Shown here: one piece after another, positions 17,906-40,133 of the stretch
Layout of the letters: every line of letters starts with the position of its first letter
Position numbering within the stretch: position 1 is the stretch's first letter
Source of the DNA: Pseudoduganella lutea
GTDB lineage: Bacteria; Pseudomonadota; Gammaproteobacteria; Burkholderiales; Burkholderiaceae_D
Direction: 5' to 3'
Assembly: GCF_004209755.1 (NCBI RefSeq)
Contig: NZ_CP035913.1
Span: forward strand, 5,890,001 to 5,954,000
DNA length: 64,000 bases
Translations under genes and position numbers: made by a program
Notes under the pieces: model-generated
The model's database searches: none
Told to the model about the DNA's origin: nothing
The model's input: only the letters and a program-made list of their open reading frames with translations

Positions 17906-17925
17906 ATAATCAGAATTACTATTCT
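17906..17925. promoter_or_regulatory. Candidate TetR operator, copy A
   Basis: The 20-mer ATAATCAGAATTACTATTCT lies 35 bases before the luciferase-like monooxygenase gene. In reverse orientation its second half, TTCTGATTAT, matches the copies at 30190, 30956 and 34741. The TATTCT at its right edge could be the -10 element, so binding would block transcription of the operon. Found by eye; no motif search was run. Confidence 0.55.
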
Positions 17926-17960
17926 AAATAACGCGGCCCACCAACCTGTAAGGAATCACC

Positions 17961-19055
17961 ATGCGCTTCTCCGTCTTCCTCAATGCGCGCACCATGAGCG
18001 CCGACGCCGACAAACAGCTGATCATCGACCTGGAGCGGCATGCCTTGCTGGCCGGGGAGCTGGGCTTCGACGCGATCTTCCTGCCGGACCACCATTTCAA
18101 CGGCTACATGCCGGTGGCCAGCGACAGCTACATGTTCGCCGCCTACCTGGCCGCGAAGCTGCCGGCCATGCATTTCGGCTTTTCCGTCACCTCCGTGCCG
18201 CTGCACCACCCGGTGCGTTTCGTCGAGCGCATCAATATCCTCGACCACCTCACGAAGGGCAAGCTGCTGGTCGGCATCGGTTCGGGCACCACGCCGGAAG
18301 AGATGATCGGCTTCGGCGTGAATTACAAGGACGCCGGCCGCATCGCGGAAGAGAACCTGCAGGCAGCCGAAGCACTGTGGACGAAGACCGTCGACGACGC
18401 ACCGGTCGAACTCGACGGGTTCCACAAGGGTCGCGTGCTGCAGCGCATCGCGCCGGCGCCGTATGGCCAGAAGCATGCGCGGCTGATGCCGGTGGCGATG
18501 AAGGAAAGCAGCACCACGCGCGCCGCCGTCAATGGCTGGCCCGCCTTCATCCCCGCCTTCACGCCGCCGAAGATCGGCGGCACCGAGCCCCTCAGCCATG
18601 TGAAGAAGTATTTCAGCAGCTATCACGAGCAGCTGCTTGCCGCCGGCCATGCGGCAGAAACCGTGGCCGACGCGCTGTCGTGGACCACGCACAGCTACCA
18701 GTGCGTGCACCTGGCGCCGACCGACGAGCAGGCGCACCGCGAAGTCATGGAAATCCTGACCGCGTACCAGGAAGCCATCGAACGCGAAGCGGCCTTCAAT
18801 GCCAAGGCCGAGGCGGACGACGCGAACAAGAAGACCGATCGGACGAACAGTGCGCTGACCGAAGAATGGATGGCCACCTGGTGCCTGTACGGCAGCCCGG
18901 AAACCGTGATCCGCAAGCTGCGCGATTACGAGGAAGTCGGTATCGGCAACATCCTGTGCGGCACCGTGACCGGGCCGCTGACGGCGCAGCGGCTGGCCTA
19001 TGCGGACCAGACCTTGCGCCTGCTGGCCGAGCAAGTACTGCCGGCATTCAAATAA
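17961..19055 (+). CDS. LLM-class flavin-dependent monooxygenase (luciferase-like)
   Basis: A 364-residue bacterial-luciferase-family protein with RBS AAGGAA before the ATG. Typical segments are AGELGFDAIFLPDHHF near residue 30, GKLLVGIGSGTTPEEM near 95, and GSPETVIRKLRDYEEVGI near 310. These enzymes use reduced FMN supplied by a separate reductase, with oxygen, for monooxygenation or oxidative cleavage. An FMN reductase gene (21481) lies in the same operon, so the pair may form a two-component system, perhaps acting on the aromatic aglycone. First gene of the operon that runs through the TetR gene. Some family members act as F420 enzymes instead. Confidence 0.82.
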   Translation: MRFSVFLNARTMSADADKQLIIDLERHALLAGELGFDAIFLPDHHFNGYMPVASDSYMFAAYLAAKLPAMHFGFSVTSVPLHHPVRFVERINILDHLTKGKLLVGIGSGTTPEEMIGFGVNYKDAGRIAEENLQAAEALWTKTVDDAPVELDGFHKGRVLQRIAPAPYGQKHARLMPVAMKESSTTRAAVNGWPAFIPAFTPPKIGGTEPLSHVKKYFSSYHEQLLAAGHAAETVADALSWTTHSYQCVHLAPTDEQAHREVMEILTAYQEAIEREAAFNAKAEADDANKKTDRTNSALTEEWMATWCLYGSPETVIRKLRDYEEVGIGNILCGTVTGPLTAQRLAYADQTLRLLAEQVLPAFK

Positions 19056-19091
19056 TCCATAGACATAAAAAAGTAGCGCGAGGAGACAGGC

Positions 19092-21484
19092 ATGACGAGA
19101 GAGCTGAGCGTCGCGGAGATGGCGACATTGACCGCCGGCGCGACGATGTGGACCACGCCGGCCATTCCCGACGCCGGCATCCCGTCGCTGTCGATGGCGG
19201 ACGGGCCGATGGGCGTGGCTGGCGCCCGCATCGACGAACGCGACATTTCCCTGCTGACGCCGGCGCCCATCGCGCTGGGCGCCAGCTGGGATCCGGAACT
19301 GGTGCGCAGGGTGGGGCGCCTGGTGGGCGGGGAAGCCATCCGCCGCGGCGTGGATCTGATGCTGGCGCCGAACCTGAACATGGCGCGCAGCCCGCTGGCC
19401 GGCCGCGCCTTCGAATACTTTTCCGAAGATCCGGTGCTGACCGGCACGCTGGGCGCGGCCTGGGTGCAGGGCTGCCAGTCGGTCGGCACCGGCGCGGTGG
19501 CCAAGCACCTGGTCTGCAACGACAGCGAGACGGCGCGCGACGTCATGAACGCCGTGGTCGACGAGCGCACGCTGCGCGAAGTGTACCTGCTGCCGTTCGA
19601 GATGGCGGCGCAGGCCGGTTGCGCCGGCATGCTCACCGCCTACAACCGGATCAACGGGCAATGGTGCGCGGAGGCGGGGCCCGTGATCCGCGACATCGTC
19701 AAGGAGGAATGGCGGTTCCCCGGCGTGTTCATGAGCGACTGGTTCGGCACGCATTCCACGGTAGGCTCGCTGAACGGCGGCCTGGACCTGGAAATGCCGG
19801 GGCCGGCGCGCTTCCTGGGCGCGCGCAGCGCCGGCGCCGTGGCCGAAGGGCAGGTGCCGCTGGCGCGCCTGCAGGACGCGGCGCAGCGCGTTGCGACCGC
19901 CGCGCAGCGCTTCGGCGCAGGCAAGGGGCAGCCTGTCGACGATGCAGCGGCCACGGACCTGCTGGTCGAGGCGGCCGCCGCCGGCTTCACGCTGGTGCGC
20001 AACGAAGGCGGCTTGCTGCCGCTCGACCCGGCGCGCCAGCAGCGCATCGCCGTGATCGGCCCGAACGCCAGCGCGCCCTGCTTCCAGGGGGCACCTTCGC
20101 CAGGATCGCCGTCAAGGAAGACGCGGTCTTGCCCATCGATGCATTGCGGGCGCGCTTCGGCGACGCCATTGCCGGCTATGCGCCGGGCGTCGATCCGCAA
20201 CCCAGGCTGCCGCGCATGCCCGTGCGGCCCGCGCGCCCGCTGGACGACGGCTGCACGCGCGGCATGACGATCGACTATTTCGACAATGCCGATTTCGCCG
20301 GCCTTCCGGTGCTGAGCGAAACGCGCGATACCAATTCGCTGACCTGGTTCCACGGCGTGCATGAAGCGGGCGCCTTCCAGGCCGCCGCGGGAACGCGTGC
20401 CAGCGGCCTGTTCACCGTCACCGAAGCGGGCGAGCACCGTTTCCATGTGGGCGGCACCGGTGCGCTGCGCCTGCTGGTCGACGGCCGTGAAGTCTTCCGC
20501 CGCGACGAACAGCTGGCGCCGGGCGACGTGATGGGGCGCCTGAAAAGCGGCGATGCCGACAGCGTCGCCATCCACCTGGAGGCGGGCCGCACGGTCGAAG
20601 TGGTGGTGGAACTGCGCTATACGCCGGCCCGCTGCCAGGGCCTGTGGTACGGCGTGCGTGCCCCGGGAACGGCCGAAGCGATGTTGACCGCCGCGGTGCA
20701 GGCGGCCCGCGATGCCGACGTCGTCATCCTCGTGGTCGGCGAAACGTCCGATGCCAGCGTGGAGAGCAAGGACCGCGCCGATACGTGCCTGCCGGCCGAG
20801 CAGGTCGCCCTGATCGAAGCAGTATGCGCCGCGAATCCGCACACGGTCGTCGTCACCAATGTCGGCCATGCGTTCGACACACGCTGGGAAACCCGCGCGA
20901 GGGCGGTGCTGCACTGCTGGTACCCGGGACAGGAATTCGGCACGGCGCTGGCCCAGGTGCTGGCCGGCGACCGCGAGCCGGGCGGCCGCATGCCCGTCAC
21001 GATCGCGCGCGAGGACGGCGATTACCCGGCCCTGTCGCTGCAGCCGGACGCGCAGGGCGACCTGCCCTACAGCGACGGCGTGCGTTTCGGCTACCGGGGC
21101 CTGGCGGCGCGCGGCACCGCACCGCGGCAGCCGTTCGGCGGCGGGCGCGGCTATGCCGAGTTCCACCTGCGCGATGCCGGCGTGCGGCTGGCCGGCGACG
21201 GCTGCGAAGTGACTGTCACGCTGCGCAACACCAGTGCGCGGGCCGGCGCGGAAGTCGTGCAGGTCTATCGCACCGAACCCGAGCTGACGCTGGTCGGCTA
21301 CGCCAAGGCCTGGCTGGAGCCGGGTGTGGCCACGAATGTCGTCATCGCCATTCCGTTGCGCCGCATGCAAGTGTGGCGCGGCGCCTGGCAAACGCTGGAA
21401 GGCCCGGTCCACCTGCTGGTGGGTCATTCCAGCGCCGACCTGCCGCTGTCGGTATCCATCACATTACAGGGAGACACACCATGA
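19092..21484 (+). pseudogene. GH3 beta-glucosidase with PA14 insert, disrupted by a one-base frameshift
   Basis: Two adjacent frames together encode a full GH3 enzyme of ~797 residues. Frame one (from the ATG at 19092, RBS GAGGAGA) covers the catalytic barrel with KHLVCND and the nucleophile aspartate in VFMSDWFGT. Near 20087-20091 a run of five Gs sits where six are needed to continue from FQG into GTFARIAVKED. The second frame holds the PA14 insert (TIDYFDNADFAG), the second GH3 domain (VVGETSDASVESKDR) and the Fn3-like end, and stops at 21484. The remainder is intact, so the lesion is recent, a sequencing error, or phase-variable. As written, translation gives a 391-residue product. Confidence 0.85.
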
Positions 21485-22086
21485 ACCAGTACACGAACCA
21501 GGCCCGCGCCAGCGGCAGGGCACCCTTCATCGTCGGCGTCGGCGGCACCACCCGCCCCGGTTCCAGCACGGAAAGCGCGTTGCGCTCGACCTTGCGCCAT
21601 GCCGAGGAGCTGGGCGCCGAGACCATGCTGTTCGGCGGCGAGGCGCTGGCGTCGCTGGCCGGCTATGCGCCCGAACTGAGCGATCGCACGGAAGGCCAGC
21701 GCGCGCTGGTCGAAGCGGTGCGCCGCGCCGATGCGGTGATCTTCGCCTCGCCCGGTTACCACGGCGGCGTGTCCGGCCTCGTGAAGAATGCCATCGACCT
21801 GCTGGAAGACCTGCGCGCCGACGAACGCGTGTACCTGGACGGCATGCCCGTCGGCTGCATCGTCACCGCGGCGGGCTGGCAGGGCTGCAACACCACGCTG
21901 GCGGCCATGCGCTCGATCGTGCACGCGCTGCGCGGCTGGCCCACGCCGCTGGGCGTCACGCTCAATACGGCCGGCGTGAAACTGTTCGATGGCGATGGCC
22001 AGTGCACCGATGCGCAAGTGAGCGCCAGCCTGCGCACGCTGGCCGAGCAGGTGGTCGGCGTTCGCAAGCCGGCCTTTGCAGCGTGA
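21481..22086 (+). CDS. NAD(P)H-dependent FMN reductase
   Basis: A 201-residue flavodoxin-fold protein. The phosphate-binding loop GGTTRPGSST is near residue 21, and SPGYHGGVSGLVKNAIDLL near residue 90 is the signature of the NADPH_FMN_red family. It should deliver reduced FMN in the cytoplasm, most plausibly to the luciferase-like monooxygenase at the head of the operon. Its start overlaps the GH3 stop in an ATGA, so its translation could be weakened if ribosomes leave the GH3 message early at the frameshift. The start choice follows from that overlap. Confidence 0.85.
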   Translation: MNQYTNQARASGRAPFIVGVGGTTRPGSSTESALRSTLRHAEELGAETMLFGGEALASLAGYAPELSDRTEGQRALVEAVRRADAVIFASPGYHGGVSGLVKNAIDLLEDLRADERVYLDGMPVGCIVTAAGWQGCNTTLAAMRSIVHALRGWPTPLGVTLNTAGVKLFDGDGQCTDAQVSASLRTLAEQVVGVRKPAFAA

Positions 22087-22096
22087 GGGGCGCGCC

Positions 22097-22744
22097 ATGA
22101 CGATCAACAGAATACGGTTCGACCGGCAACGCCCAGCCGCCGCGAAAGAAGGCGTGTCGCGCCGCGACGTGCTTGCCGCGCTGCTGGCCGGGGCCACGCT
22201 GGCCACCACCTGGACCGGTGCCGCGGCCGCCGCGGCGCTGAAGGCGGCCGGCGCAGCGGCGACCGTGCGGCCCGGCCTGAGCGCGGGCGAAGCCGCCATC
22301 CTGTCGGCCGCGGCGCAGGTGATCATCCCCACGACCGACACGCCCGGCGCAAGAGAGGCCGGTGTACCGCAGTTCATCGGCGCGCTCGTGTCGAACTGGA
22401 TGACCGACGACGAGGCGACCCTGTTCCGCGCCGGCCTGGCAGGCCTGGACGACAGTGCCCGCCAGCGCTGGCAGCGCGGCTTCGCCGAATGCACGGCGGA
22501 GCAGGGCGCCGAACTGCTGCAGGCGCTGCGCGCGGCCAGCCCCTATGGCGGGCGCACGTTCTCGCTGGCCGACCGCATCCTCGATCCGAAGGCGCCGTTC
22601 TACCTGCGCCTGCGCGACCTGGTCGTGCTGGGCTATTTCACGTCCGAGGCGGGCAGCAACCAGGAACTACGTTACCTGCCGGTGCCAGGCAAGTTCGAAT
22701 CGAATGTCGACATCAAGACCTGGCCTTACCAGGTCGTCATCTGA
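22097..22744 (+). CDS. Gluconate 2-dehydrogenase subunit 3-like protein, Tat-exported small subunit
   Basis: A 215-residue protein with a twin-arginine signal (SRRDVLAALLAGATLA) after a 20-residue leader, then the gluconate 2-dehydrogenase subunit 3 domain (SAAAQVIIPTTDTPGA, AEQGAELLQAL, FYLRLRDLVVLGYFTSE). In glucoside 3-dehydrogenases and related enzymes this subunit carries the signal that exports the flavin subunit as a folded complex. It lies 8 bases before the GMC oxidoreductase gene, the expected partner. RBS GAGGGG supports the ATG chosen. Confidence 0.82.
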   Translation: MTINRIRFDRQRPAAAKEGVSRRDVLAALLAGATLATTWTGAAAAAALKAAGAAATVRPGLSAGEAAILSAAAQVIIPTTDTPGAREAGVPQFIGALVSNWMTDDEATLFRAGLAGLDDSARQRWQRGFAECTAEQGAELLQALRAASPYGGRTFSLADRILDPKAPFYLRLRDLVVLGYFTSEAGSNQELRYLPVPGKFESNVDIKTWPYQVVI

Positions 22745-22752
22745 GGACCGCC

Positions 22753-24465
22753 ATGAGCAAGGACAAGGACAAGGACAAGGGCGCGCAATTCGACGCCATC
22801 GTGATCGGCTCGGGCATCACCGGCGGCTGGGCCGCGAAGGAACTGACCGAGAAGGGGCTGAAGGTGCTGGTGCTGGAACGGGGCGCGAAGATCGAGCATC
22901 AGACCGGCTACATCCACGAGTTCACGCCGCCATGGCAGGCGCCCAACGGCGGCCTGCCGGAACGCGAGCTGCATGCGCGCGATTACGAGATCCAGAGCAA
23001 GATCGAGCGGGGCGCGTTCAGCTGGGCCAACCGCCATTACTGGATCAACGACCGGGAGAATCCCTATGAGCAGGTCAAGCCGTTCCGCTGGCACCGCGCC
23101 AATGTGCTGGGCGGGCGATCGCTGACGTGGGGCCGGCAATCCTACCGCTGGGGCAACGACGACTTCCTCGCCAATGCCCGCGACGGGCATGGCAACGACT
23201 GGCCAATCCGCTATGCCGACCTGGCGCCGTGGTACAGCCACGTCGAACGGTTCATCGGCGTCAGCGGCCAGCCGGAAGGGCTGGAACATTTCCCCGATGG
23301 CGAGTACCTGCCGCCGATGGAGATGACGGCGCTGGAGCGCGCGCTCAAGGAGCGCATCGAAGCACGCTGGAAGGAGCGCCGCGTCACGATCGGCCGCGTC
23401 GCCAATCTCACCGTGGAACACAATGGCCGCGGGGCGTGCCAGAACCGCAATATCTGCAACCGCGGCTGCTCGTTCGGCGCGTATTTCAGCTCGCTCAGCT
23501 CGACCTTGCCGGCCGCGCAGAAGACTGGCCGGCTGACGGTCCGTACCGACAGCGTGGTGGAAGCGATCGATGTCGACCCGAAAACGAAGCGCGCCACCGG
23601 CGTGCGCGTGATCGATGCGAAGAGCGGCGAGAAGATGACGTTCAAGGCGCGGGTGATCTTCCTGTGCGCCTCCACCTACGGCACGCTGCAGGTGCTGCTG
23701 CAATCGCGCAGCGAGGCGAACCCGAACGGCATCGGCAACCACAGCGACAAGCTGGGGCGCTACCTGGTCGACCACCATGGCGTGGCCGCGTTCGGCGAAA
23801 TCAAGGGCTTCGAGGACCGCAACTACAAGGGCCGCCGTGCCACCGGCATCCTGATCCCGCGCTTTCGCAATCTCGGCCGGCAGGACGAGGACGCCGACTT
23901 CACTCGCGGCTATGGTTTCCAGGGTGGCGCCATGCGCGACGACTGGACCAACACGGCCGCGTTGACGGACGACTTCGGCGCCGGCATGAAGCACAACATC
24001 GCCCGTCCCGGCAAGTGGGTCGCCTTCCTGGGCGCCTTCGGCGAGCAGCTGCCGCAGGTGAACAACCGCGTGACGCTGAACGACAAGAAGCCCGGCAATT
24101 ACGGCTTGCCGCAACTGTGCTTCGACGTGGCCTACGGCGAGAACGAGCGCAAGATGGCTGTCGATGCCGGTAAACAGGCCGAGCAGATGCTGAAAGCGGC
24201 CGGCGCCGAGCGCGTGCAGCTGATTCCCGTGCGGACCATGCCGGGCGTGTCGATCCACGAGATGGGCGGCGCGCGCATGGGGCACGACCCGGCGGAGTCG
24301 GTGCTCAATGCCCACAACCAGGTGCATGGCGTGGACAACCTGTTCGTCACCGATGGCGCGGCCATGGCCTCGGCCGGCACCGTCAATCCGTCGCTGACCT
24401 ACATGGCGCTGACGGCACGCGCGGTCGATTACGCGGTGGCGCAGATCAAGGCCGGGCGCATCTGA
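22753..24465 (+). CDS. GMC-family FAD sugar oxidoreductase (probable glycoside 3-dehydrogenase/oxidase)
   Basis: A 570-residue flavoprotein. The FAD loop VIGSGITGG is at residues 17-25, and the active-site pair is His502 (GVSIHEMGG) and Asn545 (GTVNPSLT). A cysteine cluster C229-x5-C235-x3-C239 (CQNRNICNRGC) resembles the iron-sulphur site of dehydrogenase-type GMC enzymes. It has no signal of its own, so it probably rides to the periplasm with the upstream Tat subunit. Relatives oxidise C3 of glycosides, the step that prepares C-glycosides for beta-elimination. No cytochrome c subunit follows, so the electron acceptor is unclear. Substrate specificity is inferred from the locus. Confidence 0.82.
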   Translation: MSKDKDKDKGAQFDAIVIGSGITGGWAAKELTEKGLKVLVLERGAKIEHQTGYIHEFTPPWQAPNGGLPERELHARDYEIQSKIERGAFSWANRHYWINDRENPYEQVKPFRWHRANVLGGRSLTWGRQSYRWGNDDFLANARDGHGNDWPIRYADLAPWYSHVERFIGVSGQPEGLEHFPDGEYLPPMEMTALERALKERIEARWKERRVTIGRVANLTVEHNGRGACQNRNICNRGCSFGAYFSSLSSTLPAAQKTGRLTVRTDSVVEAIDVDPKTKRATGVRVIDAKSGEKMTFKARVIFLCASTYGTLQVLLQSRSEANPNGIGNHSDKLGRYLVDHHGVAAFGEIKGFEDRNYKGRRATGILIPRFRNLGRQDEDADFTRGYGFQGGAMRDDWTNTAALTDDFGAGMKHNIARPGKWVAFLGAFGEQLPQVNNRVTLNDKKPGNYGLPQLCFDVAYGENERKMAVDAGKQAEQMLKAAGAERVQLIPVRTMPGVSIHEMGGARMGHDPAESVLNAHNQVHGVDNLFVTDGAAMASAGTVNPSLTYMALTARAVDYAVAQIKAGRI

Positions 24466-24481
24466 CGCACGGGAAAATTCC

Positions 24482-25168
24482 ATGCATGCCATCGACCCCC
24501 ACGTGCGTCCGACAAAACAGGACCGCAGCCAGCGTTCGTTCGAGCGCATCGTCGAAGCCACCATCGGGCTGCTGCGCGAGCGGTCCTATGAAGACATCAG
24601 GCTGGCGGAAATCTGCGAGCGGTCCGGCGTGTCCACCGGCGCGCTGTATGGGCGGGTCGGCGGCAAGGACGACCTGCTGCGTGCCGTGCAGGTGCGCTTC
24701 CTCGCGGAGCTGGCGTTGCGCTTCGAGGCCCACGCCGTGCGCATTGCACGCGGCTCGCATGGCCTGGCCGATACCGTGCCGGCCGTGGTGGGTGCGCTGG
24801 GCAACCTGCTCGACGAGAACGCCGGCGTGCTGCGTGCGTTCATGCGCGCCAGCGCGACGGATCCGGCGATCGAGGAAGTGGGCAAGCGGTCGGCGCAGCA
24901 GAATCATGCGCGTTTTTCCGCGCTGCTGATGCGGCACGTGGACGAGATCCGCCACCCGCAGCCCGAACGCGCCGTCGCCAGCGGCATGCTGCTGGTGTAT
25001 TCCGCGCAGGCGCGCTCGCTGGGGCTGGACAACGTCAGCGGCCAGCTCGGCGCAGCGGAGTGGCAGGCGCTGTTGCGGGACCTGAGCGACATGATGCTGG
25101 CCTACCTGACGTTCGGCCAGGCTTCGACACACCAGATTTATAACCAACATTCCAATTCCAATGATTGA
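24482..25168 (+). CDS. TetR/AcrR-family transcriptional regulator, paralogue 1
   Basis: A 228-residue regulator whose N-terminal helix-turn-helix reads EICERSGVSTGALYGRVGGKDDL. Its ligand domain is similar along its whole length to the second TetR at 30259 (for example GLGNLL versus ALGNLL, and the ending LSDMMLA). It is the last gene of the monooxygenase-oxidoreductase operon, 16 bases after the GMC gene. It likely represses its own operon through the palindrome at 17906; the ligand could be a glycoside or aglycone. Confidence 0.85.
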   Translation: MHAIDPHVRPTKQDRSQRSFERIVEATIGLLRERSYEDIRLAEICERSGVSTGALYGRVGGKDDLLRAVQVRFLAELALRFEAHAVRIARGSHGLADTVPAVVGALGNLLDENAGVLRAFMRASATDPAIEEVGKRSAQQNHARFSALLMRHVDEIRHPQPERAVASGMLLVYSAQARSLGLDNVSGQLGAAEWQALLRDLSDMMLAYLTFGQASTHQIYNQHSNSND

Positions 25169-25178
25169 AAGGCGGGAG

Positions 25179-26126: not shown

Positions 26127-26135
26127 GGTGACGGC

Positions 26136-30258: not shown

Positions 30259-30906
30259 ATGCCGCCCATCAGTGCCCATGCCCGCGTGCCCAAGCAGGGC
30301 CGCAGCCGCGAATCCTTCGAGCGTATCATCGTCGCCACCATTGAACTGCTGGGCGAGCGCGCGTACGACCAGATCACGCTGGCCGAGATCTGCCAGCGTT
30401 CCGGCGTGTCGACCGGGTCGCTGTATGGCCGGGTCGACGGCAAGGACGAACTGCTGCGCGTGGTGCAGGTGCGTTTCCTGGAAAACCTCGCCGAACAGTT
30501 CACCGCCGAAGCGGACCGCATCGCCGCCGAGGCGAGCGGACTCGCGCAGGTCGTGCCGGCCGTGGTGGCGGGTCTCGGCAACCTGCTGAAGGAACACGCC
30601 AGCGTGCTGCGTTCGTTCATGCTGCGCGGCTCGACCGATCCCGTGATCGGCGCGGCGGGCAAGAGAGCGGCGCTGGACAACCATGCGAAGTTCATCCGCC
30701 TGATCCAGGCGTGCCGCGACGAGATCCGCCATCCCCACCCGGACCGCGCCGTCGATACCGGCATGCTGCTCATCTACGCGACGCAGGCCCGCTTCCTGGG
30801 CCTGGACAGCATTGGCCGACTGGACGAGGCGGGCAGCTGGAACCAGCTGCTCGACGACCTGTCCGACATGATGCTGGCATTCTTGTTGTTCAAGCCGAAG
30901 CGGTAA
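30259..30906 (+). CDS. TetR/AcrR-family transcriptional regulator, paralogue 2
   Basis: A 215-residue regulator with the helix-turn-helix EICQRSGVSTGSLYGRVDGKDEL, nearly the same recognition helix as the TetR at 24482. The two proteins are alike along their full length. It is a single gene with its own palindromic site just upstream. A similar palindrome lies just after it, before the Tat-exported TIM-barrel gene, so it may control its neighbours on both sides. The ATG has only a weak ribosome site. Confidence 0.85.
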   Translation: MPPISAHARVPKQGRSRESFERIIVATIELLGERAYDQITLAEICQRSGVSTGSLYGRVDGKDELLRVVQVRFLENLAEQFTAEADRIAAEASGLAQVVPAVVAGLGNLLKEHASVLRSFMLRGSTDPVIGAAGKRAALDNHAKFIRLIQACRDEIRHPHPDRAVDTGMLLIYATQARFLGLDSIGRLDEAGSWNQLLDDLSDMMLAFLLFKPKR

Positions 30907-31085: not shown

Positions 31086-32018
31086 ATGAAATCCGTCAGT
31101 TCCCACCGCAGGCAATTCTTGGCGCTACTGGCGGCGTCCAGTGCGGCCACGCTCCTTCCGACAGGACCGGCCCACGCTTACCCGTCCTTTCCGCCACTGC
31201 GCGGCAGGCTGCGCCAGGGCCTGACACCGCACCTGTTCAATGCCGATCTCGAAGACACGTGCAGGATGGCCGTCGCGCTCGGGATCAAAGGCCTGGATTT
31301 CGTCAGTAATCCCGCCGACTGGCCACTGCTGAAGAAGCATGGACTGACAATGACGATGCTGCGGGTGGATCATGGCGGCGGACTGTCCCGTCTCGGGAGA
31401 GCGCCCGCAGGCCCTCCCGGCTGGAATGCGATCGGCACGCCGGACCAGGGCGGGGTATTCGAGGCGGCGCTGCGCGACCGGATCGATGCCGCTGCCATGC
31501 ACGGCATCCCGAACATCATCCTGACCTGCGGCGAGCGTGGCGCCATCGGTCATGAAGAAGGCAAGCGCAATGCGCTGGCCTTCCTTCGCCGGGTCAGCGC
31601 ACACGCGGAACAACGTGGCGTCACGTTGGCGATCGAGAATATCAATTCGGGCCACAGCGGCGGCCCGCCTGTCTCACCCGGCAGCATGTTCGACCACTTG
31701 TCCTGGGGACTGGATGTGGTCAGCAAGGTCAATTCGCGAAGCGTGAAGTTGCTGGTCGACCTCTACCATGCCCAGCTCATGGACGGCAACATCACGAACT
31801 TCCTGCGTGCCAACATGCAGTGGATCGGCCATTTCCATACGGGCGGCGTGCCCGGGCGAAACGAGATCGACGAGACACAGGAACTGAATTATCGACACGT
31901 CGCGCGTGTCATCGCCGAGCAGGGTTTCACCGGTTTCGTCAGCCACGAATGGATGCCTTCGGCAAGCGCGGACAAATTGACGGTCCTGCGGAAAAGCATC
32001 GAGATCATCGACGTCTGA
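31086..32018 (+). CDS. Tat-exported sugar isomerase/epimerase-like TIM barrel
   Basis: A 310-residue protein with a twin-arginine signal (SHRRQFLALLAASSAATL) and RBS GGAGAAG. The mature part is an AP-endonuclease-2-type barrel: MAVALGIKGLDFV, LAIENINSGHSGG (a likely metal glutamate), LLVDLYHAQL (aspartate/histidine), WIGHFHTGGV and VSHEWMP. Export separates it from the cytoplasmic isomerases here and puts it where the Tat-dependent GMC oxidoreductase would act. It may work on 3-keto-glycosides in the periplasm; that is inference. A palindromic site precedes it. Confidence 0.8.
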   Translation: MKSVSSHRRQFLALLAASSAATLLPTGPAHAYPSFPPLRGRLRQGLTPHLFNADLEDTCRMAVALGIKGLDFVSNPADWPLLKKHGLTMTMLRVDHGGGLSRLGRAPAGPPGWNAIGTPDQGGVFEAALRDRIDAAAMHGIPNIILTCGERGAIGHEEGKRNALAFLRRVSAHAEQRGVTLAIENINSGHSGGPPVSPGSMFDHLSWGLDVVSKVNSRSVKLLVDLYHAQLMDGNITNFLRANMQWIGHFHTGGVPGRNEIDETQELNYRHVARVIAEQGFTGFVSHEWMPSASADKLTVLRKSIEIIDV

Positions 32019-32139: not shown

Positions 32140-33621
32140 TCAATGCCCGCGTGATGCCGGCCGCTGTCCCGTGGCCGGCATCACGCGGGCAAGACGCACC
32201 GTGAAATACAGCGCGGCCGCCAGCAGCGCCCACAGCAACGGCGCGGCGTACAGGTAGGCATCGGCATACCCTGCAGCCTTGCCGCCCGCGGTGGCTGCGT
32301 GGAAGAATACCCATCCCGTCAGCGCCACGCCCACCGCGCCGGCGATCTGCTGCACGGCGGTGAACAGGCCGGCGGCCACGCCGGCGTCGGCGATCGGCAC
32401 ATCCTGCAAGGTCGCGTTCGACAGCTGCGGCCCACACAGGCCCATGCCCAGCCCCATGCCGAACTGCGCCAGCAGCAGCGCCGGATAGACCAGCTGCCCA
32501 CCATGCACCGACCACGCCGCCAGCAGCAGGCTCGCACACGACACGCCGATCCCGATCATCATCACCCGCACGCCGAGGCGGCGGAACAGCCACGGGCCAA
32601 GCAGCACGATGGCCCCCATCGCGCCGGCGGCGATCGGCGCGCACGCATAGGCCATCTCGGCGGCACCCAGTCCCAGGCCGGACTGCAGCACGAACGTCAT
32701 GGCCAGCAGGTGGCCGGGCAGGATCGGGTTGATGCACAAGGTGCACAGCAAGCCCAGTGCCACCTTGCGGCGCTTCAGCAGGGCCGGGTCGACGAGGGCA
32801 TTGCCGCGCGTGGCCTGGCGCCAGCGCAGGTAGCGTACCGTGCCCCAGGCCAGCGGCACGGTGGCGACCAGCAGCGCGACCAGGCCAACCGGCCAGCCGC
32901 GCGCGGGGCCTTCGATCAGCGGTGCCAGCAGGGCGAACAGCACGAGCACGGACAATGCGGCGCCAGCCGCGTCGATGCGGCTGGCGTTCACGCCGCGACC
33001 GGGCGGTAGCAACAGCCAGCCGGCGGCGAGGCTGAACAGGCCGATCGGCAGGTTGATGAGGAAGGTGAGCCGCCAGCCCAGGCCGAACCAGTTCGCATCG
33101 ATCAGCAGGCCACCGACGATCGGGCCCAGCGCGGCGGAAAAGCCGCCGAGAAAGCCGAACACCGTATACACCTTGTAGCGCTGTTCGGGCGGGTACATGA
33201 CCTGCACTAGCGCCATCACCTGCGGCACCATCAGCGCCGCGCTGGCGCCCTGCAGCAGCCGGGCAACCTGCAGGGCCAGCGCATCGGGCGCCAGGCCGCA
33301 GGCCACCGACGTCAAGGTAAACAGTGCGATCCCGGCCAGGAACATGCGCCGGTAGCCAAGGCTGTCGCCGAGCCGCCCGCCGACGATCAGCAACACCGCG
33401 AACGCCATCGCATAACCGGCGATGATCCATTCCAGCGCCGCCTTGCTGGCGCCCATGCCCGACTCGATCGACGGGATGGCGACATTGATGATGGTGGTGT
33501 CGAGCAGGTCCATCACGAAGGCAAGGGCCACGGCCACGAGGGCCAGCGTGCGGCGGCGCGGGGTAAAGGAGGCTGCCGCGGCAAAAGCGCTGCCCTCCGC
33601 GGCGATAACGGTATCGGTCAT
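32140..33621 (-). CDS. DHA2-family MFS drug efflux transporter (EmrB/QacA type)
   Basis: A 493-residue membrane protein with about 14 hydrophobic segments, the hallmark of DHA2 exporters. FVMDLLDTTIINVAIPSIE at helix 1 is the family motif D1, and GGRLGDSLGYRR follows helix 2. It probably exports lipophilic or aromatic compounds with proton antiport. It lies 46 bases after the NodD-like LysR gene on the same strand, so that regulator and pump probably form one unit. The last codons form a very strong hairpin (see 32145-32190). Confidence 0.85.
   Translation of the reverse strand: MTDTVIAAEGSAFAAAASFTPRRRTLALVAVALAFVMDLLDTTIINVAIPSIESGMGASKAALEWIIAGYAMAFAVLLIVGGRLGDSLGYRRMFLAGIALFTLTSVACGLAPDALALQVARLLQGASAALMVPQVMALVQVMYPPEQRYKVYTVFGFLGGFSAALGPIVGGLLIDANWFGLGWRLTFLINLPIGLFSLAAGWLLLPPGRGVNASRIDAAGAALSVLVLFALLAPLIEGPARGWPVGLVALLVATVPLAWGTVRYLRWRQATRGNALVDPALLKRRKVALGLLCTLCINPILPGHLLAMTFVLQSGLGLGAAEMAYACAPIAAGAMGAIVLLGPWLFRRLGVRVMMIGIGVSCASLLLAAWSVHGGQLVYPALLLAQFGMGLGMGLCGPQLSNATLQDVPIADAGVAAGLFTAVQQIAGAVGVALTGWVFFHAATAGGKAAGYADAYLYAAPLLWALLAAALYFTVRLARVMPATGQRPASRGH
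32145..32190. repeat. 18-bp perfect hairpin inside the 3' end of the DHA2 gene
   Basis: Perfect 18-bp arms (32145-32162 and 32173-32190) separated by 10 bases lie within the last 17 codons of the transporter. The stop follows at once. It could end or protect the transcript from the minus strand, but no T tract follows. Confidence 0.6.
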
Positions 33622-33667: not shown

Positions 33668-34576
33668 CTAGACGGTCGCGGCGACCTCGATGATCCGTTC
33701 ACGGATCCAGCGGATCGCCGGGTCGTTGTTGCGGTGCTTGTGCCATTGCAGCATCTGCACCAGGCGCGGGATGCGCGGTGGCGGTTCCCACACGCGGATC
33801 GGCAGCGTTTGCTGCGCCTGCAGCGCGATGCGCCGGTGCACGGTGGCGATGCGGTCCGTGCCGACCACCAGCGAGGGCAGGGCGGTCAGCGTCGGCGCGG
33901 TGACTTCGACGCGGCGTTTCACATCGAAGCTTTCCATGAACCAGCCATCGAAGCTGGCCAGCGGCTTGCCGGTCGTGAAGGCGGCCGCCACGTGGCCGCA
34001 GGCCAGGTAATCGTCGAAGGTCAGGCGTTCGCGCACCCGGCTGTTGCCTTCCCACGTCACGCACAGGTAGTCGTCCTCGAACAGTGCGGCCGATGGATGT
34101 TCCTTCGACAGGTATTGCGACGGGATCACGAGGAAATCGGCGTCGCCCTTCTCCAGAAGGTCGGCCGGCTTGTCGTGCTGGTGGCGCAGGTGCAGCCGCA
34201 GGCCCGGCGCCTCGCGGTACAGGGCGGCCAGTAGCGGCGGCACCAGCACGGCCGTGGTGTAGTCGGACACGAGCAGGATCACGTCGCGCGCTTCGCTGGC
34301 CGGGTCGAACCGGGGCTGCGCGGCGATCGTGGTATCGATGCGCATCAGCACCTCGCGCACCGGCTCGACCAGGTCGCGCGCCCGCGGTGTCAGCATCATC
34401 TGGCGGCCGGCCGCGACCAGCAGTTCGTCGTTGAAATAGGCGCGCAGCCGGGCCAGCGCGCTGCTGGTGGCGGACTGGCTGAGAAAGACCTTCTCGGCCG
34501 CGTGCGTGATGTTGCGCTCGGTGAGCAGGGCATTGAGGATCACCAGCAGGTTCAGGTCGAGCTTGTTGAAACGCAT
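33668..34576 (-). CDS. LysR-family regulator, NodD-like
   Basis: A 302-residue LysR protein. Its N-terminus MRFNKLDLNLLVILNALLTE and the segment ITHAAEKVFLSQSATSSALA have the layout of the NodD branch, whose rhizobial members respond to plant flavonoids. The C-terminal two thirds are the effector domain (LLVSDYTTAVLVPPLLA). It is divergent from the MFS gene at 34810 and co-directional with the DHA2 pump. A flavonoid-like inducer would fit a C-glycoside locus, but NodD-like proteins also sense other aromatics. Confidence 0.8.
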   Translation of the reverse strand: MRFNKLDLNLLVILNALLTERNITHAAEKVFLSQSATSSALARLRAYFNDELLVAAGRQMMLTPRARDLVEPVREVLMRIDTTIAAQPRFDPASEARDVILLVSDYTTAVLVPPLLAALYREAPGLRLHLRHQHDKPADLLEKGDADFLVIPSQYLSKEHPSAALFEDDYLCVTWEGNSRVRERLTFDDYLACGHVAAAFTTGKPLASFDGWFMESFDVKRRVEVTAPTLTALPSLVVGTDRIATVHRRIALQAQQTLPIRVWEPPPRIPRLVQMLQWHKHRNNDPAIRWIRERIIEVAATV

Positions 34577-34760: not shown

Positions 34761-34809
34761 TAACCAGTTCGAACGGCCGCAGAGCCGTACACCAACGATG
34801 GAGACGAAG

Positions 34810-36024
34810 ATGCAGAACAACGGTCCTCAAGCAGTCCGCCAGGCCGACTGGCGCCAGGGATGGATCCTGGTGTTTTCGGGCTTCCTGCCCGTGATGGCGA
34901 TCATCGCCCTGGCGCCCACGCTGCCCACGCTGCTGGCCCATTTCCACGATGTGCCGAACGCAAAGCTGATGGTGCCGCTGCTGATCACGGCCCCCAGCGC
35001 CTGCATCGCGCTGTTCGCGCCGGCGGCCGGCATGATTGCCGACCGGTTCGGGCGCCGCAAGCTGCTGTTGTGGGCCATGGCCTTCTACGGCTGCGGCGGC
35101 CTGATGCCCTTCTTCATCGATAACTTCTGGGCGGTGGTGGCGGGGCGCTTCGTGATCGGCATCGGCGAAGCCGGCGTGCTCACCGTCGTCAACACGCTGC
35201 TCGCCGACTACTTCGATGAACAGGCGCGGCACCGCTGGCTGATGATCCAGGGCGTGGTCGGCTCCATGCTCGGCACGCTGACGATCGCCTCTTCCGGCTT
35301 CCTTGCCGCGCAGGGCTGGCAGTTCCCGTTCCTCGTGTATGGCGTGGCGATCCCGATCTTCCTGGCCAGCCTCGCTTACCTGTACGAGCCAGCGCCGCGC
35401 GCGAAAAGCGCAGGCCGGGCGGCGGGCAGCCCGCCCGCCACGCCCTTCCCGTACATGGTCGCCTTGCTGGTGTGCGGCGTCACGGTGGTGCTGTCGACGA
35501 TCTACTACGTGCAGGTCATCAATTTCTCGCTGCTGCTCAAGGAAATGGGCATCGGCGATCCGAAGTCGATCGGCTTGTGGATGGCCATTCCCAGCATCGG
35601 CGTGCCGATCGGCGCCGTGGTGTTCAAGCTGACGACGCGCTTTGGCGCCGGCGCGCAGATCTTCCTGGTCTTCCTGTGCTATGCGATCGGGCTGGGCGGC
35701 ATCGGCCTCGCGCCCGACTACAAGGTGGCACTGGCCTTCGCCTTCGTGCAGCAGCTGGCCAACGGCATCATCGTGCCGGCGCTGATCGCCTGGACGCAGG
35801 GCAAATTCTCGTTCGAGCACCGCGGCCAGGGCATGGGCCTGTGGGCCAGTTCGTTCTTCGTCGCCCAGTTCCTGTCGCCGGCGGCTGTCAACGCGATGCG
35901 CGGCATGGTCGGCGACCTGCAGGCGGCATTCCTCGCCTTCGGCATCATCGCCGGGATCTGCGCGATCGGCGCCTGCCTGCTGCGGCTGCGGCGCCCGCCG
36001 GCGGTGTCCGGCGCGTTCTCCTAG
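34810..36024 (+). CDS. Major facilitator superfamily transporter, paralogue of the one at 27144
   Basis: A 404-residue inner-membrane protein with about 12 hydrophobic segments and the loop motif ADRFGRRKLLL. I chose the ATG at 34810 since GGAG lies 6 bases upstream, while the ATG at 34798 has no ribosome site. It heads a run with the two deglycosidase subunits, so uptake of a glycoside, possibly a C-glycoside, is the likely role. A palindromic TetR-type site and a LysR-type dyad lie in its upstream region, so two regulators may act here. Confidence 0.85.
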   Translation: MQNNGPQAVRQADWRQGWILVFSGFLPVMAIIALAPTLPTLLAHFHDVPNAKLMVPLLITAPSACIALFAPAAGMIADRFGRRKLLLWAMAFYGCGGLMPFFIDNFWAVVAGRFVIGIGEAGVLTVVNTLLADYFDEQARHRWLMIQGVVGSMLGTLTIASSGFLAAQGWQFPFLVYGVAIPIFLASLAYLYEPAPRAKSAGRAAGSPPATPFPYMVALLVCGVTVVLSTIYYVQVINFSLLLKEMGIGDPKSIGLWMAIPSIGVPIGAVVFKLTTRFGAGAQIFLVFLCYAIGLGGIGLAPDYKVALAFAFVQQLANGIIVPALIAWTQGKFSFEHRGQGMGLWASSFFVAQFLSPAAVNAMRGMVGDLQAAFLAFGIIAGICAIGACLLRLRRPPAVSGAFS

Positions 36025-37572: not shown

Positions 37573-37586
37573 TCGCCACGATCCGC

Positions 37587-37606
37587 CAGGCGGCTATTGC
37601 CGCCTG
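37587..37606 (+). terminator. Stem-loop after the beta-subunit gene
   Basis: Perfect 8-bp arms CAGGCGGC / GCCGCCTG around a TATT loop, 15 bases after the stop. No T tract follows, so termination strength is uncertain. Confidence 0.5.
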
Positions 37607-37904
37607 ATCGAACGTCGGGGCGGCCCGGATGGCGCCGTGATCGGCGGCCCTGGCAGCGCATCACTTTCAGATCCAGACACGTTTGACGCGCCTTCGCGCG
37701 GACGTGGAAACCCCTGCCTGGCACGTGGCCATGCGGGGCTTCGCACGCCCGTGCCGGCGGCGCCGGTATTCACCGGATCGATGCCAGTCATCCAAACAAT
37801 CAGGCCGGATGGGGCATCGAAACGGGCAGTCCAGCAACTATCATTTTTCGCACAACACAACACCCGACAGCGGGTCACGACCCGCCGATGACCAGGAGAC
37901 GAAA
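37607..37904. promoter_or_regulatory. Gene-free region before the TBDR gene
   Basis: About 300 bases with no coding signal. The last ~100 bases before the TBDR gene are less GC-rich and are likely to hold its promoter. I found no copy of the TetR-type palindrome and no Fur box here. Confidence 0.45.
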
Positions 37905-40133
37905 ATGAAACACCCCAAGCTCAGCTCGATCACCCATGCGCTTTGCGCCGCGGGTTGCCTGTCCTTCGCGACAGGCGCCGCCGCCCAGGCCGGTGACGCC
38001 AGCCAGGAAGCAAAGCCGGACCGTGGCGGCATCGCCGAAGTGATCATCACGGCGCAGAAGGTGGCACAGCCGGCGAGCAAGACGCCGCTGGCGCTGTCCG
38101 TCATATCGGGCGACGACTTGAAGAACGCCGGCACGAACGACCCGCGCGCGCTGGCCGAAGCGCTGCCGAACGTGGAAATCGCCCAGGAGAGCGGCATGCT
38201 GCAGGTATCGATCCGCGGCGTGACGAGCCTGGACATGACGGAGAAGGGCGACCCGTCGGCGGCATTCCATGTCGACGGCGCCTACATCCCCCGCTACGAG
38301 GCGCAGGCCGCGGCCTTCTTCGACCTGGACCGCATCGAAGTGCTGCGCGGCCCGCAAGGCACGCTGTACGGCCGCAACGCCACCGCCGGCGCGATCAACC
38401 TGATCACGAACAAGCCCACGCGCAAGCTGGAAGGCAAGGTCGGCGTCGAGCTGGGCAACTACCGCACGCGGCGCGTCGATGCGATGCTGAACGTGCCGAT
38501 CGGCGACAACTGGGCGATGCGCGCGGCGATCAACACCAACAAGCACGAAACGTACTACAACGCGGGCCCGAACACGATCGAGCTGGAAAGCCAGGACGAC
38601 AAGTCCGCGCGCCTGCACCTGCTGGGCACTTTCGGCAAGGACACCAGTCTGCTGCTGACGGCGGAACAGAACAGGATCGGCGGCGGCGCCTCGTCGCCGG
38701 TGCCGATCACGAACTTCTTCGACGGTGAACTGATCGGCAAGCTGGGCTTCACGCCGGCCGGCCGCGGCAACCATATCAAGGATCCCGTCTACGTCGACCG
38801 CGGCAAGGGCGTGCAGCGCACGGCGTTCTGGGAATTCAAGCAGGATGCCGGTTCCCACCGCGACAACGAGGCCACGTCGCTGCGCGGCGAGTTCAAGACA
38901 CGCGTGGCCGACATCGACGTCACGTACCAGCTGGCGAAGATGCGGCTGACGCTGGACCAGCTGAACAACGGGGTCTACTTCGGCTTCCCGTTCACCACGC
39001 TGAACGTGGGCGACAGCGACGCGGTCTCGCACGAGTTCCGCCTCAATTCCACGGGCACCGGGCCGCTGCGCTGGGTGGCCGGCGTGTACAAGTTCGACGA
39101 GGACATCTTCCGCCGCGCCGCCTACACGACCTACGTCACGGCACCCTTCGGCCAGTTCAACATCGTGCTGCCGTTCCTGGCCACGCTGAACAACAAGTCG
39201 ACGGCGGCGTTCGGGCAAGCCACCTATGCGGTGCGCGACGATACCCGGCTGATCGTCGGCGTGCGCCGCACCCGTGACCGCAAGTCCGGTTACGATCCGC
39301 TCAGTGGCGAAGCCGCGGTGCCGCCGGCAACGGAGAGTTCGAAGGCGTATTCGGAAGACGTACGCTTCAACAACACCAGCTGGAAGCTCGGCATCGATCA
39401 CGACCTGCGGCCGAACGTGATGGTGTATGGCAGCATCTCGACAGGCTACAAGGCGGGCGGCTTCAACGCCGAACGGGACACGGGCGTGTACCGGCCGGAG
39501 ACCCTGAAGGCCTACGAGGCCGGCATCAAGGGCCGCTTCCTGGACAACCGCCTGCAACTGTCCGCCAACGTCTTTCATTACGCCTATGAAGACCAGCAGC
39601 TGACGACGACGACCTGCCGTACCAACGATCCCGCATCGTGTCATTCGTTCACGGCGAACGCGGCCAACTCGGAAGTCGACGGCGCCGAGTTCGAAGGCAA
39701 GCTGCGCGTGTTCGAGGACGGCACGCTGAGCACGAGCGTGGCGTTCACCGATGCAAAGTACAAGAGCTACCATCCGACCGCCACGATCGATTTCTCCGGG
39801 CAGAAGCTGGACCGCGCTCCCACGTCGACGATCAGCCTGGGCTACACGCATCATTTCACGCTGGGCAATGGCGGCGAGATCACGGCCACCGCCAACACGC
39901 GGCACTCGACGTCGTATTACATCAGCGACCCGGTCGAAGGCATCCGCTACCGCCAGCCGTCGTACTGGAAATCCGATGCCTCGATCGGCTATGCCGACCC
40001 GGACGGCAAGTGGAACGTGCAATTGTTCGTCAAGAACATCGAGGATACGGTGAAGATCGAAAGCCGCGTGCCGGGTTCGTTCTTCCTGAACGATCCGCGC
40101 ACGTACGGGGTGCGGGCGGCGTATAACTTCTAA
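37905..40133 (+). CDS. TonB-dependent receptor of the glycoside island
   Basis: A 742-residue outer-membrane receptor with RBS AGGAG, a signal peptide ending ATGAAAQ, and the TonB-box region AEVIITAQK. The plug reads PNVEIAQESGMLQVSIRGVT and RIEVLRGPQGTLYGRNATAG, and the barrel ends GVRAAYNF. The overall type (TAQK TonB box, GRNATAGAIN) is common among receptors for plant aromatics, glycosides and some iron complexes. With no Fur box and its place next to the deglycosidase genes, uptake of a glycoside through the outer membrane is the best guess. Confidence 0.85.
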   Translation: MKHPKLSSITHALCAAGCLSFATGAAAQAGDASQEAKPDRGGIAEVIITAQKVAQPASKTPLALSVISGDDLKNAGTNDPRALAEALPNVEIAQESGMLQVSIRGVTSLDMTEKGDPSAAFHVDGAYIPRYEAQAAAFFDLDRIEVLRGPQGTLYGRNATAGAINLITNKPTRKLEGKVGVELGNYRTRRVDAMLNVPIGDNWAMRAAINTNKHETYYNAGPNTIELESQDDKSARLHLLGTFGKDTSLLLTAEQNRIGGGASSPVPITNFFDGELIGKLGFTPAGRGNHIKDPVYVDRGKGVQRTAFWEFKQDAGSHRDNEATSLRGEFKTRVADIDVTYQLAKMRLTLDQLNNGVYFGFPFTTLNVGDSDAVSHEFRLNSTGTGPLRWVAGVYKFDEDIFRRAAYTTYVTAPFGQFNIVLPFLATLNNKSTAAFGQATYAVRDDTRLIVGVRRTRDRKSGYDPLSGEAAVPPATESSKAYSEDVRFNNTSWKLGIDHDLRPNVMVYGSISTGYKAGGFNAERDTGVYRPETLKAYEAGIKGRFLDNRLQLSANVFHYAYEDQQLTTTTCRTNDPASCHSFTANAANSEVDGAEFEGKLRVFEDGTLSTSVAFTDAKYKSYHPTATIDFSGQKLDRAPTSTISLGYTHHFTLGNGGEITATANTRHSTSYYISDPVEGIRYRQPSYWKSDASIGYADPDGKWNVQLFVKNIEDTVKIESRVPGSFFLNDPRTYGVRAAYNF

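What the first reader, a model, noticed from the sequence alone, without database searches (positions are those of the whole stretch)
17906..40133. Candidate C-glycoside / 3-keto-glycoside catabolic island in a betaproteobacterium
Sequence shows, within 22 kb, a deglycosidase alpha/beta pair, a GMC sugar oxidoreductase with Tat subunit, four other AP-endonuclease-2-fold barrels (one exported), two related MFS transporters, GH3, a luciferase-like monooxygenase with FMN reductase, a TBDR, two TetR proteins and a NodD-like LysR with an efflux pump. Known C-glycoside pathways combine an FAD-dependent C3 oxidation with a metal-dependent two-subunit deglycosidase. The inference is a full route: outer-membrane uptake, periplasmic O-glycoside trimming and 3-oxidation, import, C-C cleavage, aglycone oxidation and efflux. 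This arrangement, with periplasmic oxidation and a LysR/TetR double control, is not one I can match to a described system.
Basis: partly seen in the sequence, partly recalled or inferred. Interest (0 to 1): 0.88.

Follow-up and report, generated by a model that had tools for sequence, protein, structure and literature searches.

The report
Glycoside-dismantling gene island in soil bacteria
A soil bacterium carries a conserved gene island that probably oxidises sugar-bearing plant compounds outside the inner membrane, imports them and snaps off the sugar, including the very stable carbon-linked kind, by a route known in parts but here assembled differently and joined to an unexplained enzyme set.

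Summary
The alpha/beta pair (36160-37149, 37180-37572) passes each sequence test run for a C-glycoside deglycosidase: beta Pfam profile, metal-binding and catalytic residues, and the beta tyrosine that C-C cleavage needs. The flavin oxidase with its Tat-exported partner lies near the deglycosidase in 12 of 12 Burkholderiales genomes searched, and in 7 of 12 sphingomonad plasmids, so the pairing is conserved. Corrections: the GH3 gene is frameshifted in this assembly and lacks a signal peptide (by eye), so periplasmic trimming by it is not supported; hydratase and 3-keto-sugar reductase homologs, which relatives keep beside the deglycosidase, lie in a second locus about 220 kb away; NodD kinship was not established. 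The chemistry (oxidation, elimination, hydration, reduction) is known from Agrobacterium and gut bacteria; the combination of exported dehydrogenase, two-subunit deglycosidase, TonB receptor and MFS importer did not appear in the paper listings searched. Most interesting extra: the luciferase-like monooxygenase and GH3, mostly with an FMN reductase, form a module that recurs in Deinococcus, Streptomyces, Pseudomonas and sphingomonads, in 6 of 10 plasmid records near a deglycosidase, with unknown function. Verdict: real, new variant of a known kind.

The parts
17961..19055 (+). LLM: luciferase-like, presumably FMNH2-dependent monooxygenase, first gene of a tightly spaced run 17961-29131
   Evidence: PF00296 E 1.4e-38; predicted fold nearest RslO1 and luciferase, type II Baeyer-Villiger enzymes lower
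19092..21484 (+). GH3 glycosidase with PA14 and Fn3-like domains, no signal peptide by eye, interrupted by a frameshift near 20085
   Evidence: Pfam on the two pieces apart; frame open in 9 of 9 relatives read, one in part; site
21481..22086 (+). NAD(P)H-dependent FMN reductase, likely partner of the LLM
   Evidence: PF03358 E 3.8e-22
22097..22744 (+). Gluconate_2-dh3 small subunit with twin-arginine signal
   Evidence: PF13618 E 3.7e-32; SRRDVL and hydrophobic stretch read by eye
22753..24465 (+). GMC flavoprotein, candidate glycoside 3-dehydrogenase, no signal of its own
   Evidence: PF05199/PF00732; best solved match fructose dehydrogenase large subunit, E 3.9e-45
24482..25168 (+). TetR-type regulator 1
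   Evidence: PF00440
25179..26126 (+). TIM1: IolE-like barrel (ATG also at 25161)
   Evidence: PF01261; IolE model 68 bits, cut-off 290; fold nearest IolE, with AtHYD and 3-keto-glucopyranoside lyases among the matches
26136..27131 (+). TIM2: IolE-like barrel, 32% identical to TIM1
   Evidence: PF01261; IolE model 83 bits, cut-off 290
27144..28355 (+). MFS transporter 1
   Evidence: PF07690
28358..29131 (+). TIM3: hydroxypyruvate or 2-oxo-tetronate isomerase-like barrel
   Evidence: PF01261 E 3.3e-34; NCBIfam matches below cut-off
30259..30906 (+). TetR-type regulator 2, 61% identical to regulator 1
31086..32018 (+). TIM4: isomerase-like barrel with twin-arginine signal
   Evidence: PF01261; SHRRQFL read by eye
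32140..33621 (-). MFS transporter, possible efflux pump (start codon chosen by eye; efflux not tested)
   Evidence: PF07690 E 4.3e-41
33668..34576 (-). LysR-type regulator
   Evidence: PF00126/PF03466; best NCBIfam BsrA, below cut-off
34798..36024 (+). MFS transporter 2, candidate importer of the 3-keto-glycoside
   Evidence: homolog directly before CGDa in 11 of the 12 loci L001-L012, about 4.7 kb upstream in L010
36160..37149 (+). C-glycoside deglycosidase alpha subunit
   Evidence: 8qvc E 2.1e-124; metal and catalytic residues
37180..37572 (+). C-glycoside deglycosidase beta subunit
   Evidence: PF19906 E 6.6e-37; Tyr30 matches PuCGE Tyr39beta
37905..40133 (+). TonB-dependent receptor, candidate outer-membrane uptake
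   Evidence: NCBIfam TonB receptor models, below cut-off; a homolog lies downstream of CGDb in 8 of 12 loci L001-L012 and upstream in 2

Best explanation
The island encodes uptake and non-hydrolytic deglycosylation of plant aryl glycosides, very probably including C-glycosides. Model: a TonB-dependent receptor brings the glycoside through the outer membrane (inferred); a GMC flavoprotein, carried through the Tat system by its Gluconate_2-dh3 partner, oxidises the sugar at C3 in the periplasm and passes electrons to a respiratory acceptor (location inferred from the Tat signal, regiochemistry from context); MFS transporter 2 imports the 3-keto-glycoside (inferred from adjacency); the cytoplasmic Mn-dependent CGD alpha/beta complex eliminates the aglycone, leaving 2-hydroxy-3-keto-glucal (active site intact by sequence); an AtHYD-type hydratase and a Gfo/Idh/MocA reductase, here in a second locus at about 6.148-6.150 Mb although the hydratase stands beside the deglycosidase in 11 of 12 relatives, return the sugar to glucose (inferred); the aglycone is oxidised by separate enzymes (LLM/FMN reductase in the island, a monooxygenase/VOC/hydrolase cluster at about 7.23-7.24 Mb) or exported (inferred). 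TIM1-TIM3 and MFS1 may be a parallel arm for other 3-keto-sugars or 3-keto-O-glycosides (guess).
For: CGDb reaches PF19906 at 126 bits, cut-off 27.6; CGDa matches 8 distinct solved chains at E <= 3.4e-35, whose entries also match CGDb. AgCGD2 E147, D179, H269, K271, E305, H149, E307 align with E144, D176, H260, K262, E296, H146, E298; six of the seven are identical in 27 of 27 alphas aligned, H260 in 23 of 27. The PuCGE Tyr39beta equivalent, needed for C- but much less for O-cleavage (PMC10628242, passages), is Tyr30, present in 27 of 27 betas. The best GMC match lies within about 23 kb of CGDa in 12 of 12 genomes searched: in 8 upstream in the LLM block, in 4 next to the hydratase near CGDab. 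In sphingomonad plasmids a 50-52% GMC relative lies within 16 kb of CGDa in 7 of 12 records. The hydratase homolog in the own genome matches AtHYD at E 1.1e-188, and the reductase is 53% identical to the one in the relatives' operon.
Against: No activity, expression or growth data. A characterised CGD also cleaves 3-keto-O-glycosides, so C-glycosides need not be the natural substrate. No signal-peptide program was run. None of the 20 island proteins scanned with Pfam is a cytochrome c. Three further loci with a 56-59% CGDa (L013-L015, metagenome-assembled, short contigs) show no GMC match in what was fetched and were not searched whole. Five of 12 sphingomonad records lack this type of GMC near CGDa, so deglycosidases also occur with other oxidases. 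Hydratase and reductase are not in the island of this genome. GH3 is frameshifted. H260 is Q in 4 of 27 alphas.
Confidence: 0.72

Rival explanations
1. Same oxidation-elimination logic, but the physiological substrates are 3-keto-O-glucosides (flavonoid, phenolic or oligosaccharide O-glycosides); C-glycoside cleavage is incidental. (Not exclusive of the other readings.)
For: PuCGE cleaves both kinds (PMC10628242), and its authors argue that O-glycosides are far commoner; TIM1 is distantly related to 3-keto-beta-glucopyranoside-1,2-lyases; GH3 and GH39 genes are nearby.
Against: The two-subunit form with Tyr30beta and the full metal site is what C-C cleavage needs; the O-specific eliminase AtOGE has a single subunit (PMC10628242).
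Confidence: 0.35
2. Two separate systems have become neighbours: LLM-GH3-FMN reductase (an aryl-glycoside module of its own) and the CGD operon; the GMC belongs functionally to only one.
For: LLM-GH3 occurs on plasmids without a CGDa match in 4 of 10 records; 3 of 12 Burkholderiales genomes have CGD but no LLM at E <= 1e-40.
Against: CGDa lies within 32 kb of an LLM in 6 of 10 plasmid records, Deinococcus included, and LLM is in 9 of 12 CGD genomes; LLM, GH3, FMN reductase, Gluconate_2-dh3 and GMC stand together in 9 of 9 genomes whose upstream stretch was read (8 chosen because their GMC lay upstream, and G263); the GMC is either in the LLM block or next to the hydratase near CGDab, as if one gene serves both.
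Confidence: 0.3
3. A cyclitol or sugar-acid catabolic island (IolE-like TIM1/TIM2, OtnI-like TIM3) with CGD-like genes of another function.
For: TIM1/TIM2 hit the IolE model (68 and 83 bits), TIM3 hydroxypyruvate isomerase and 2-oxo-tetronate isomerase models.
Against: All are far below their curated cut-offs (290, 353, 325); no other iol gene was recognised among the 20 island proteins scanned; the CGD active site is intact.
Confidence: 0.06
4. The island is decaying: frameshifted GH3 and missing hydratase/reductase mean a non-functional remnant.
For: Frameshift near 20085; hydratase and reductase absent from the locus.
Against: The other reading frames are open; P. umbonata lacks the same two genes at the locus but has a hydratase, 95% identical to this genome's, elsewhere; a one-base difference in a G run may be a sequencing error.
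Confidence: 0.08

Closest known systems
Agrobacterium tumefaciens GlycDH-AtOGE-AtHYD-Gfo operon (PMC10628242)
   Same: Flavoprotein glycoside 3-dehydrogenase (its Rhizobium homolog GlycDH was expressed with a TAT-pathway protein), Mn beta-eliminase, hydratase and Gfo reductase; the AtHYD homolog in this genome matches at E 1.1e-188.
   Different: The eliminase here is the two-subunit CGD, not single-subunit AtOGE; hydratase and reductase are in another locus; a TonB receptor, MFS transporters and the LLM-GH3 genes are added. GMC to GlycDH sequence identity was not measured.
dgp/dfg clusters of gut bacteria (DgpA with DgpBC, DfgAB; PMC8563793)
   Same: CGD alpha/beta complex, homologous subunits, same metal ligands and catalytic His.
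   Different: Oxidation in the dgp case is by the NAD-dependent Gfo/Idh/MocA enzyme DgpA; here by a flavoprotein with a Tat partner.
Soil actinobacterial clusters: Microbacterium car, Paenarthrobacter pur, P. siccitolerans PsG3Ox (PMC8563793, PMC12724307, PMC10646112)
   Same: FAD-dependent C3 oxidation followed by a CGD.
   Different: CarA and PsG3Ox are placed in the pyranose oxidase family and PurA is called an FAD-dependent oxidase; here a dehydrogenase-like GMC with a Tat small subunit, in a Gram-negative with TonB-type uptake genes.
3-keto-beta-glucopyranoside-1,2-lyases AL1/BT1 (8tcd, 8tcr, 8tct)

Membership tests
C-glycoside deglycosidase (CGD/CGE) | beta subunit of the CGDB family (PF19906) beside an AP_endonuc_2-type alpha | tested here: met
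   PF19906 126 bits over cut-off 27.6; 30 bases between alpha and beta
C-glycoside deglycosidase (CGD/CGE) | Mn ligands 1His/2Glu/1Asp/1Lys, catalytic His149 and Glu307 (AgCGD2 numbering) | tested here: met
   all seven present in the window; conservation
C-glycoside deglycosidase (CGD/CGE) | Tyr39beta required for C-C cleavage | tested here: met
   Tyr30, by equal offsets to DgpB (7bvr_B) and by printed alignments to other solved betas, which have Tyr there
C-glycoside deglycosidase (CGD/CGE) | four-helix lid domain of alpha (present in PuCGD and AgCGD2, absent from EuCGD) | not tested
   full-length alignment to AgCGD2, but no structure of alpha was predicted
C-glycoside deglycosidase (CGD/CGE) | cleavage of 3-keto-C-glycosides | not testable with these tools
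   needs enzyme assay
GlycDH-type glycoside 3-dehydrogenase with TAT partner | GMC flavoprotein without signal, paired with a Tat small subunit | tested here: met
   (signals read by eye)
GlycDH-type glycoside 3-dehydrogenase with TAT partner | sequence homology to GlycDH (AEX01166.1) | not tested
GlycDH-type glycoside 3-dehydrogenase with TAT partner | oxidation at C3 | not testable with these tools
   needs product analysis
oxidation-elimination-hydration-reduction operon | hydratase and Gfo reductase in the same operon | tested here: not met
   absent from the CGD locus of the window; homologs at G000:C1 6.148-6.150 Mb
IolE (myo-inosose-2 dehydratase), for TIM1 and TIM2 | NCBIfam TIGR04379 cut-off 290 bits | tested here: not met
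   68.3 and 83.1 bits
Type II Baeyer-Villiger monooxygenase, for LLM | fold and chemistry of 3,6-diketocamphane monooxygenase | tested here: inconclusive
NodD-like flavonoid-sensing LysR | closest kin NodD or FdeR | tested here: inconclusive
   best NCBIfam models BsrA and LeuO, below cut-off; no direct comparison with NodD or FdeR made

The most novel reading that the evidence does not exclude
The luciferase-like monooxygenase, FMN reductase and GH3 glycosidase are one functional unit, an oxygen-dependent glycoside-opening module that did not appear in the papers searched: the monooxygenase oxidises an aryl glycoside (ring hydroxylation at or next to the sugar-bearing carbon, or a Baeyer-Villiger-type oxygen insertion) so that a bond a hydrolase cannot touch becomes one GH3 can hydrolyse, complementing the C3-oxidation/CGD route in the same island.
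Probability: 0.12. Interest if true: 0.85.

Novelty: new variant of a known kind. Interest (0 to 1): 0.58.

Why it matters
C-glycosides resist hydrolases, and how Gram-negative soil bacteria use them is little known; the soil strains named in the passages I read are actinobacterial. This island and its relatives give a testable set: an exported dehydrogenase and a cytoplasmic deglycosidase on opposite sides of the inner membrane, so the 3-keto-glycoside must be imported, which predicts an unusual substrate for an MFS transporter. The recurring LLM-GH3 pair is an open biochemical question with ready genes in several genera.

Tried and rejected
Periplasmic GH3 trimming: rejected (no signal peptide by eye). 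A GH39 with a secretion-like N-terminus lies just upstream (15990-17687), but gave no match that was kept in the upstream stretches L023-L032, so it was not counted as part.

TIM1/TIM2 as replacements for the missing hydratase: weakened, because L004-L007 and L009 carry TIM1 and TIM2 and their genomes also have the hydratase beside CGDb.

GlycDH kinship of the GMC: sought through hydratase loci of two Rhizobium and one Phyllobacterium plasmid; 3 of 3 had hydratase and Gfo but no annotated GMC, so left untested.

Fold of LLM and TIM1: gave families, not substrates. A paper behind 8qvc/8umc was not found. Paper searches that could have shown a CGD with an exported GMC dehydrogenase or with a luciferase-like enzyme; seen as listings and abstract starts (at most 25 rows each; searches had more papers than were listed). 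(FdeR/NodD) was seen as a listing only. Read further: PMC10628242 (text parts 1-2 of 11, and passages), PMC12724307 (part 1 of 5; one term search without hits), PMC8563793 (passages) and PMC10646112 (passages). Supplementary figures S18 (PMC10628242) and 2 (PMC8563793), which show gene contexts, were not seen and may show similar clusters.

Distribution: CGDB found in 2 of 294 family, 1 of 369 class and 4 of 398 phylum genomes, the own genome included each time, one of the 4 below the curated cut-off.

Rows left out of counts: one search gave 15 loci; the genome searches and the residue counts used L001-L012 only, so L013-L015 are not in them. Of 23 plasmid records with a CGDa match, 15 were read (H26-H38, H40, H42); the residue counts leave out H40, H42 (about 30% identical) and the second alpha copies. 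One search used a faulty frame choice for the alphas; its alpha counts are replaced, its beta counts stand.

Full report
Setting. The window is bases 5890001-5954000 of a 7.5 Mb single-contig genome. Its closest relatives at the deglycosidase gene are in Duganella, Pseudoduganella, Massilia and Telluria; the organism itself was not named by any search.

Observation. LLM to TIM3 (17961-29131) is one plus-strand run with gaps of at most 36 bases, a likely operon. The rest is a GNAT gene, TetR2, TIM4, a minus-strand LysR/MFS pair, MFS2, CGDa, CGDb and a TonB receptor. GH3 is interrupted near 20085, where the window is one base shorter than the 6 relatives whose DNA was printed; 9 of 9 relatives read have an open frame, one of them read in part. 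Whether this is decay or a sequencing error cannot be told.

Deglycosidase. CGDb matches PF19906 at E 6.6e-37 and CGDa matches a solved complex, 8qvc, at E 2.1e-124, and DgpC- and AgCGD2-type chains at E 3.5e-36 to 7.5e-36. Mapping onto AgCGD2, whose metal ligands and catalytic His/Glu are given in PMC8563793 (passages), all seven residues are kept in the window; over 27 sequences (window, L001-L012, one unnamed family member, 13 plasmid records) six are invariant and H260 is Q in four. PMC10628242 (passages) reports that changing Tyr39 of the beta subunit abolishes C-glycoside cleavage but costs only 2.4-fold on the O-glycoside; its equivalent, Tyr30, is present in 27 of 27. So the pair has the sequence marks of a C-glycoside-competent enzyme. 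The same paper shows such an enzyme also cleaves 3-keto-O-glucosides, so the natural substrate remains open.

Coupling to an exported oxidase. The GMC has no signal; its upstream partner carries a twin-arginine one. Of the 15 loci, the 12 Burkholderiales ones were searched further. In 12 of 12 the best GMC match of the genome lies near CGDa: about 22 kb away in L001, about 13 kb or less in the other 11, by coordinates. In eight it stands in the LLM-GH3-FMN reductase block; in four (L008, L010-L012) it stands next to the hydratase near CGDab. The three other loci (L013-L015, short metagenome-assembled contigs) show no GMC match in what was fetched. In Duganella guangzhouensis (L008) the order is a LacI-like gene (by eye), TonB receptor, MFS2, CGDa, CGDb, hydratase, Gluconate_2-dh3, GMC, a Gfo-like gene, second CGDb, second CGDa, a compact and apparently complete pathway. 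In plasmids, 23 records match CGDa; 15 were read. Of the 12 sphingomonad records with CGDa identity of 49-52%, 7 have a GMC of this type (50-52% identical) within 16 kb, one of them across the record's start; of the other 5, three carry a different annotated GMC, one a 'choline dehydrogenase', and one unannotated stretch gave none.

Missing steps found elsewhere. In relatives a further barrel and a Gfo/Idh/MocA gene follow CGDb (read in L001 and L007; the unnamed G263); the barrel lies beside CGDab in 11 of 12 genomes. The window lacks both there, as does P. umbonata (L002). In the own genome a second locus about 220 kb away (6.148-6.157 Mb) holds a Gfo reductase (53% to the relatives'), a barrel 68% to theirs, a second GMC (50%) with its small subunit, and ABC transporter genes. 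The barrel matches AtHYD, the 2-hydroxy-3-keto-glucal hydratase of A. tumefaciens, at E 1.1e-188 (title). Thus candidates for all four chemical steps are encoded in the genome, in two loci.

Aglycone. Three sphingomonad loci and the Deinococcus locus carry several of VOC, hydrolase, cyclase and FAH-type genes near CGD. The own genome has a homolog of the Croceicoccus hydrolase (55%) at 7.24 Mb, in a stretch with a VOC-type protein, an FAD monooxygenase and an FAA hydrolase. That this resembles flavonoid ring degradation (fde genes) is recalled and inferred.

Shown, inferred, unknown. Shown by computation: gene identities, intact CGD active site, linkage of the GMC/Tat pair with CGD, location of the hydratase and reductase homologs, recurrence of LLM with GH3. 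Inferred: periplasmic C3 oxidation, import by MFS2, TonB uptake, substrates, regulation. Unknown: functions of LLM, TIM1-TIM4 and GH3.

Rating. The chemistry is known and the layout overlaps published systems, so this is a new variant of a known kind. The membrane-split arrangement and the LLM-GH3 module make it worth experiments.

Noticed in passing
window 20085: GH3 reading frame broken by a one-base difference in a G run; relatives read have it open.
   Followed up: partly
G000:C1 6148000-6157200 (L018): Second 3-keto-glycoside-type cluster: Gfo reductase, AtHYD-like hydratase, ABC transporter genes, a further barrel, GMC with Gluconate_2-dh3 subunit, AraC-type regulator.
   Followed up: yes
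G000:C1 about 7232000-7244000 (L050): Cluster with FAD monooxygenase, VOC-type protein, S9-type hydrolase, FAA hydrolase, DUF1302 and LysR, possibly for aromatic aglycones.
   Followed up: partly
window 12939-15741: An AMP-ligase-like and a TauD-like reading frame upstream of the island, by eye only.
   Followed up: no
window 15990-17687: GH39 glycosidase with a secretion-like N-terminus just upstream of the island; no match kept upstream in relatives.
   Followed up: partly
L008 15905-17285; also L012, L014, L037, L044-L047: Second, divergent CGD alpha genes (about 30% identical to the window's), with a beta beside it in L008, L014 and L037, near the first pair.
   Followed up: no
L058-L060 (Rhizobium and Phyllobacterium plasmids, incl. 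pTi6.2): AtHYD-like hydratase next to a Gfo oxidoreductase and sugar ABC transporter genes, without a GMC annotated nearby.
   Followed up: no
window 31086-32018: Isomerase-like barrel with a Tat signal; no match kept in the Massilia/Telluria loci L006, L007, L009, and inverted in L002.
   Followed up: no
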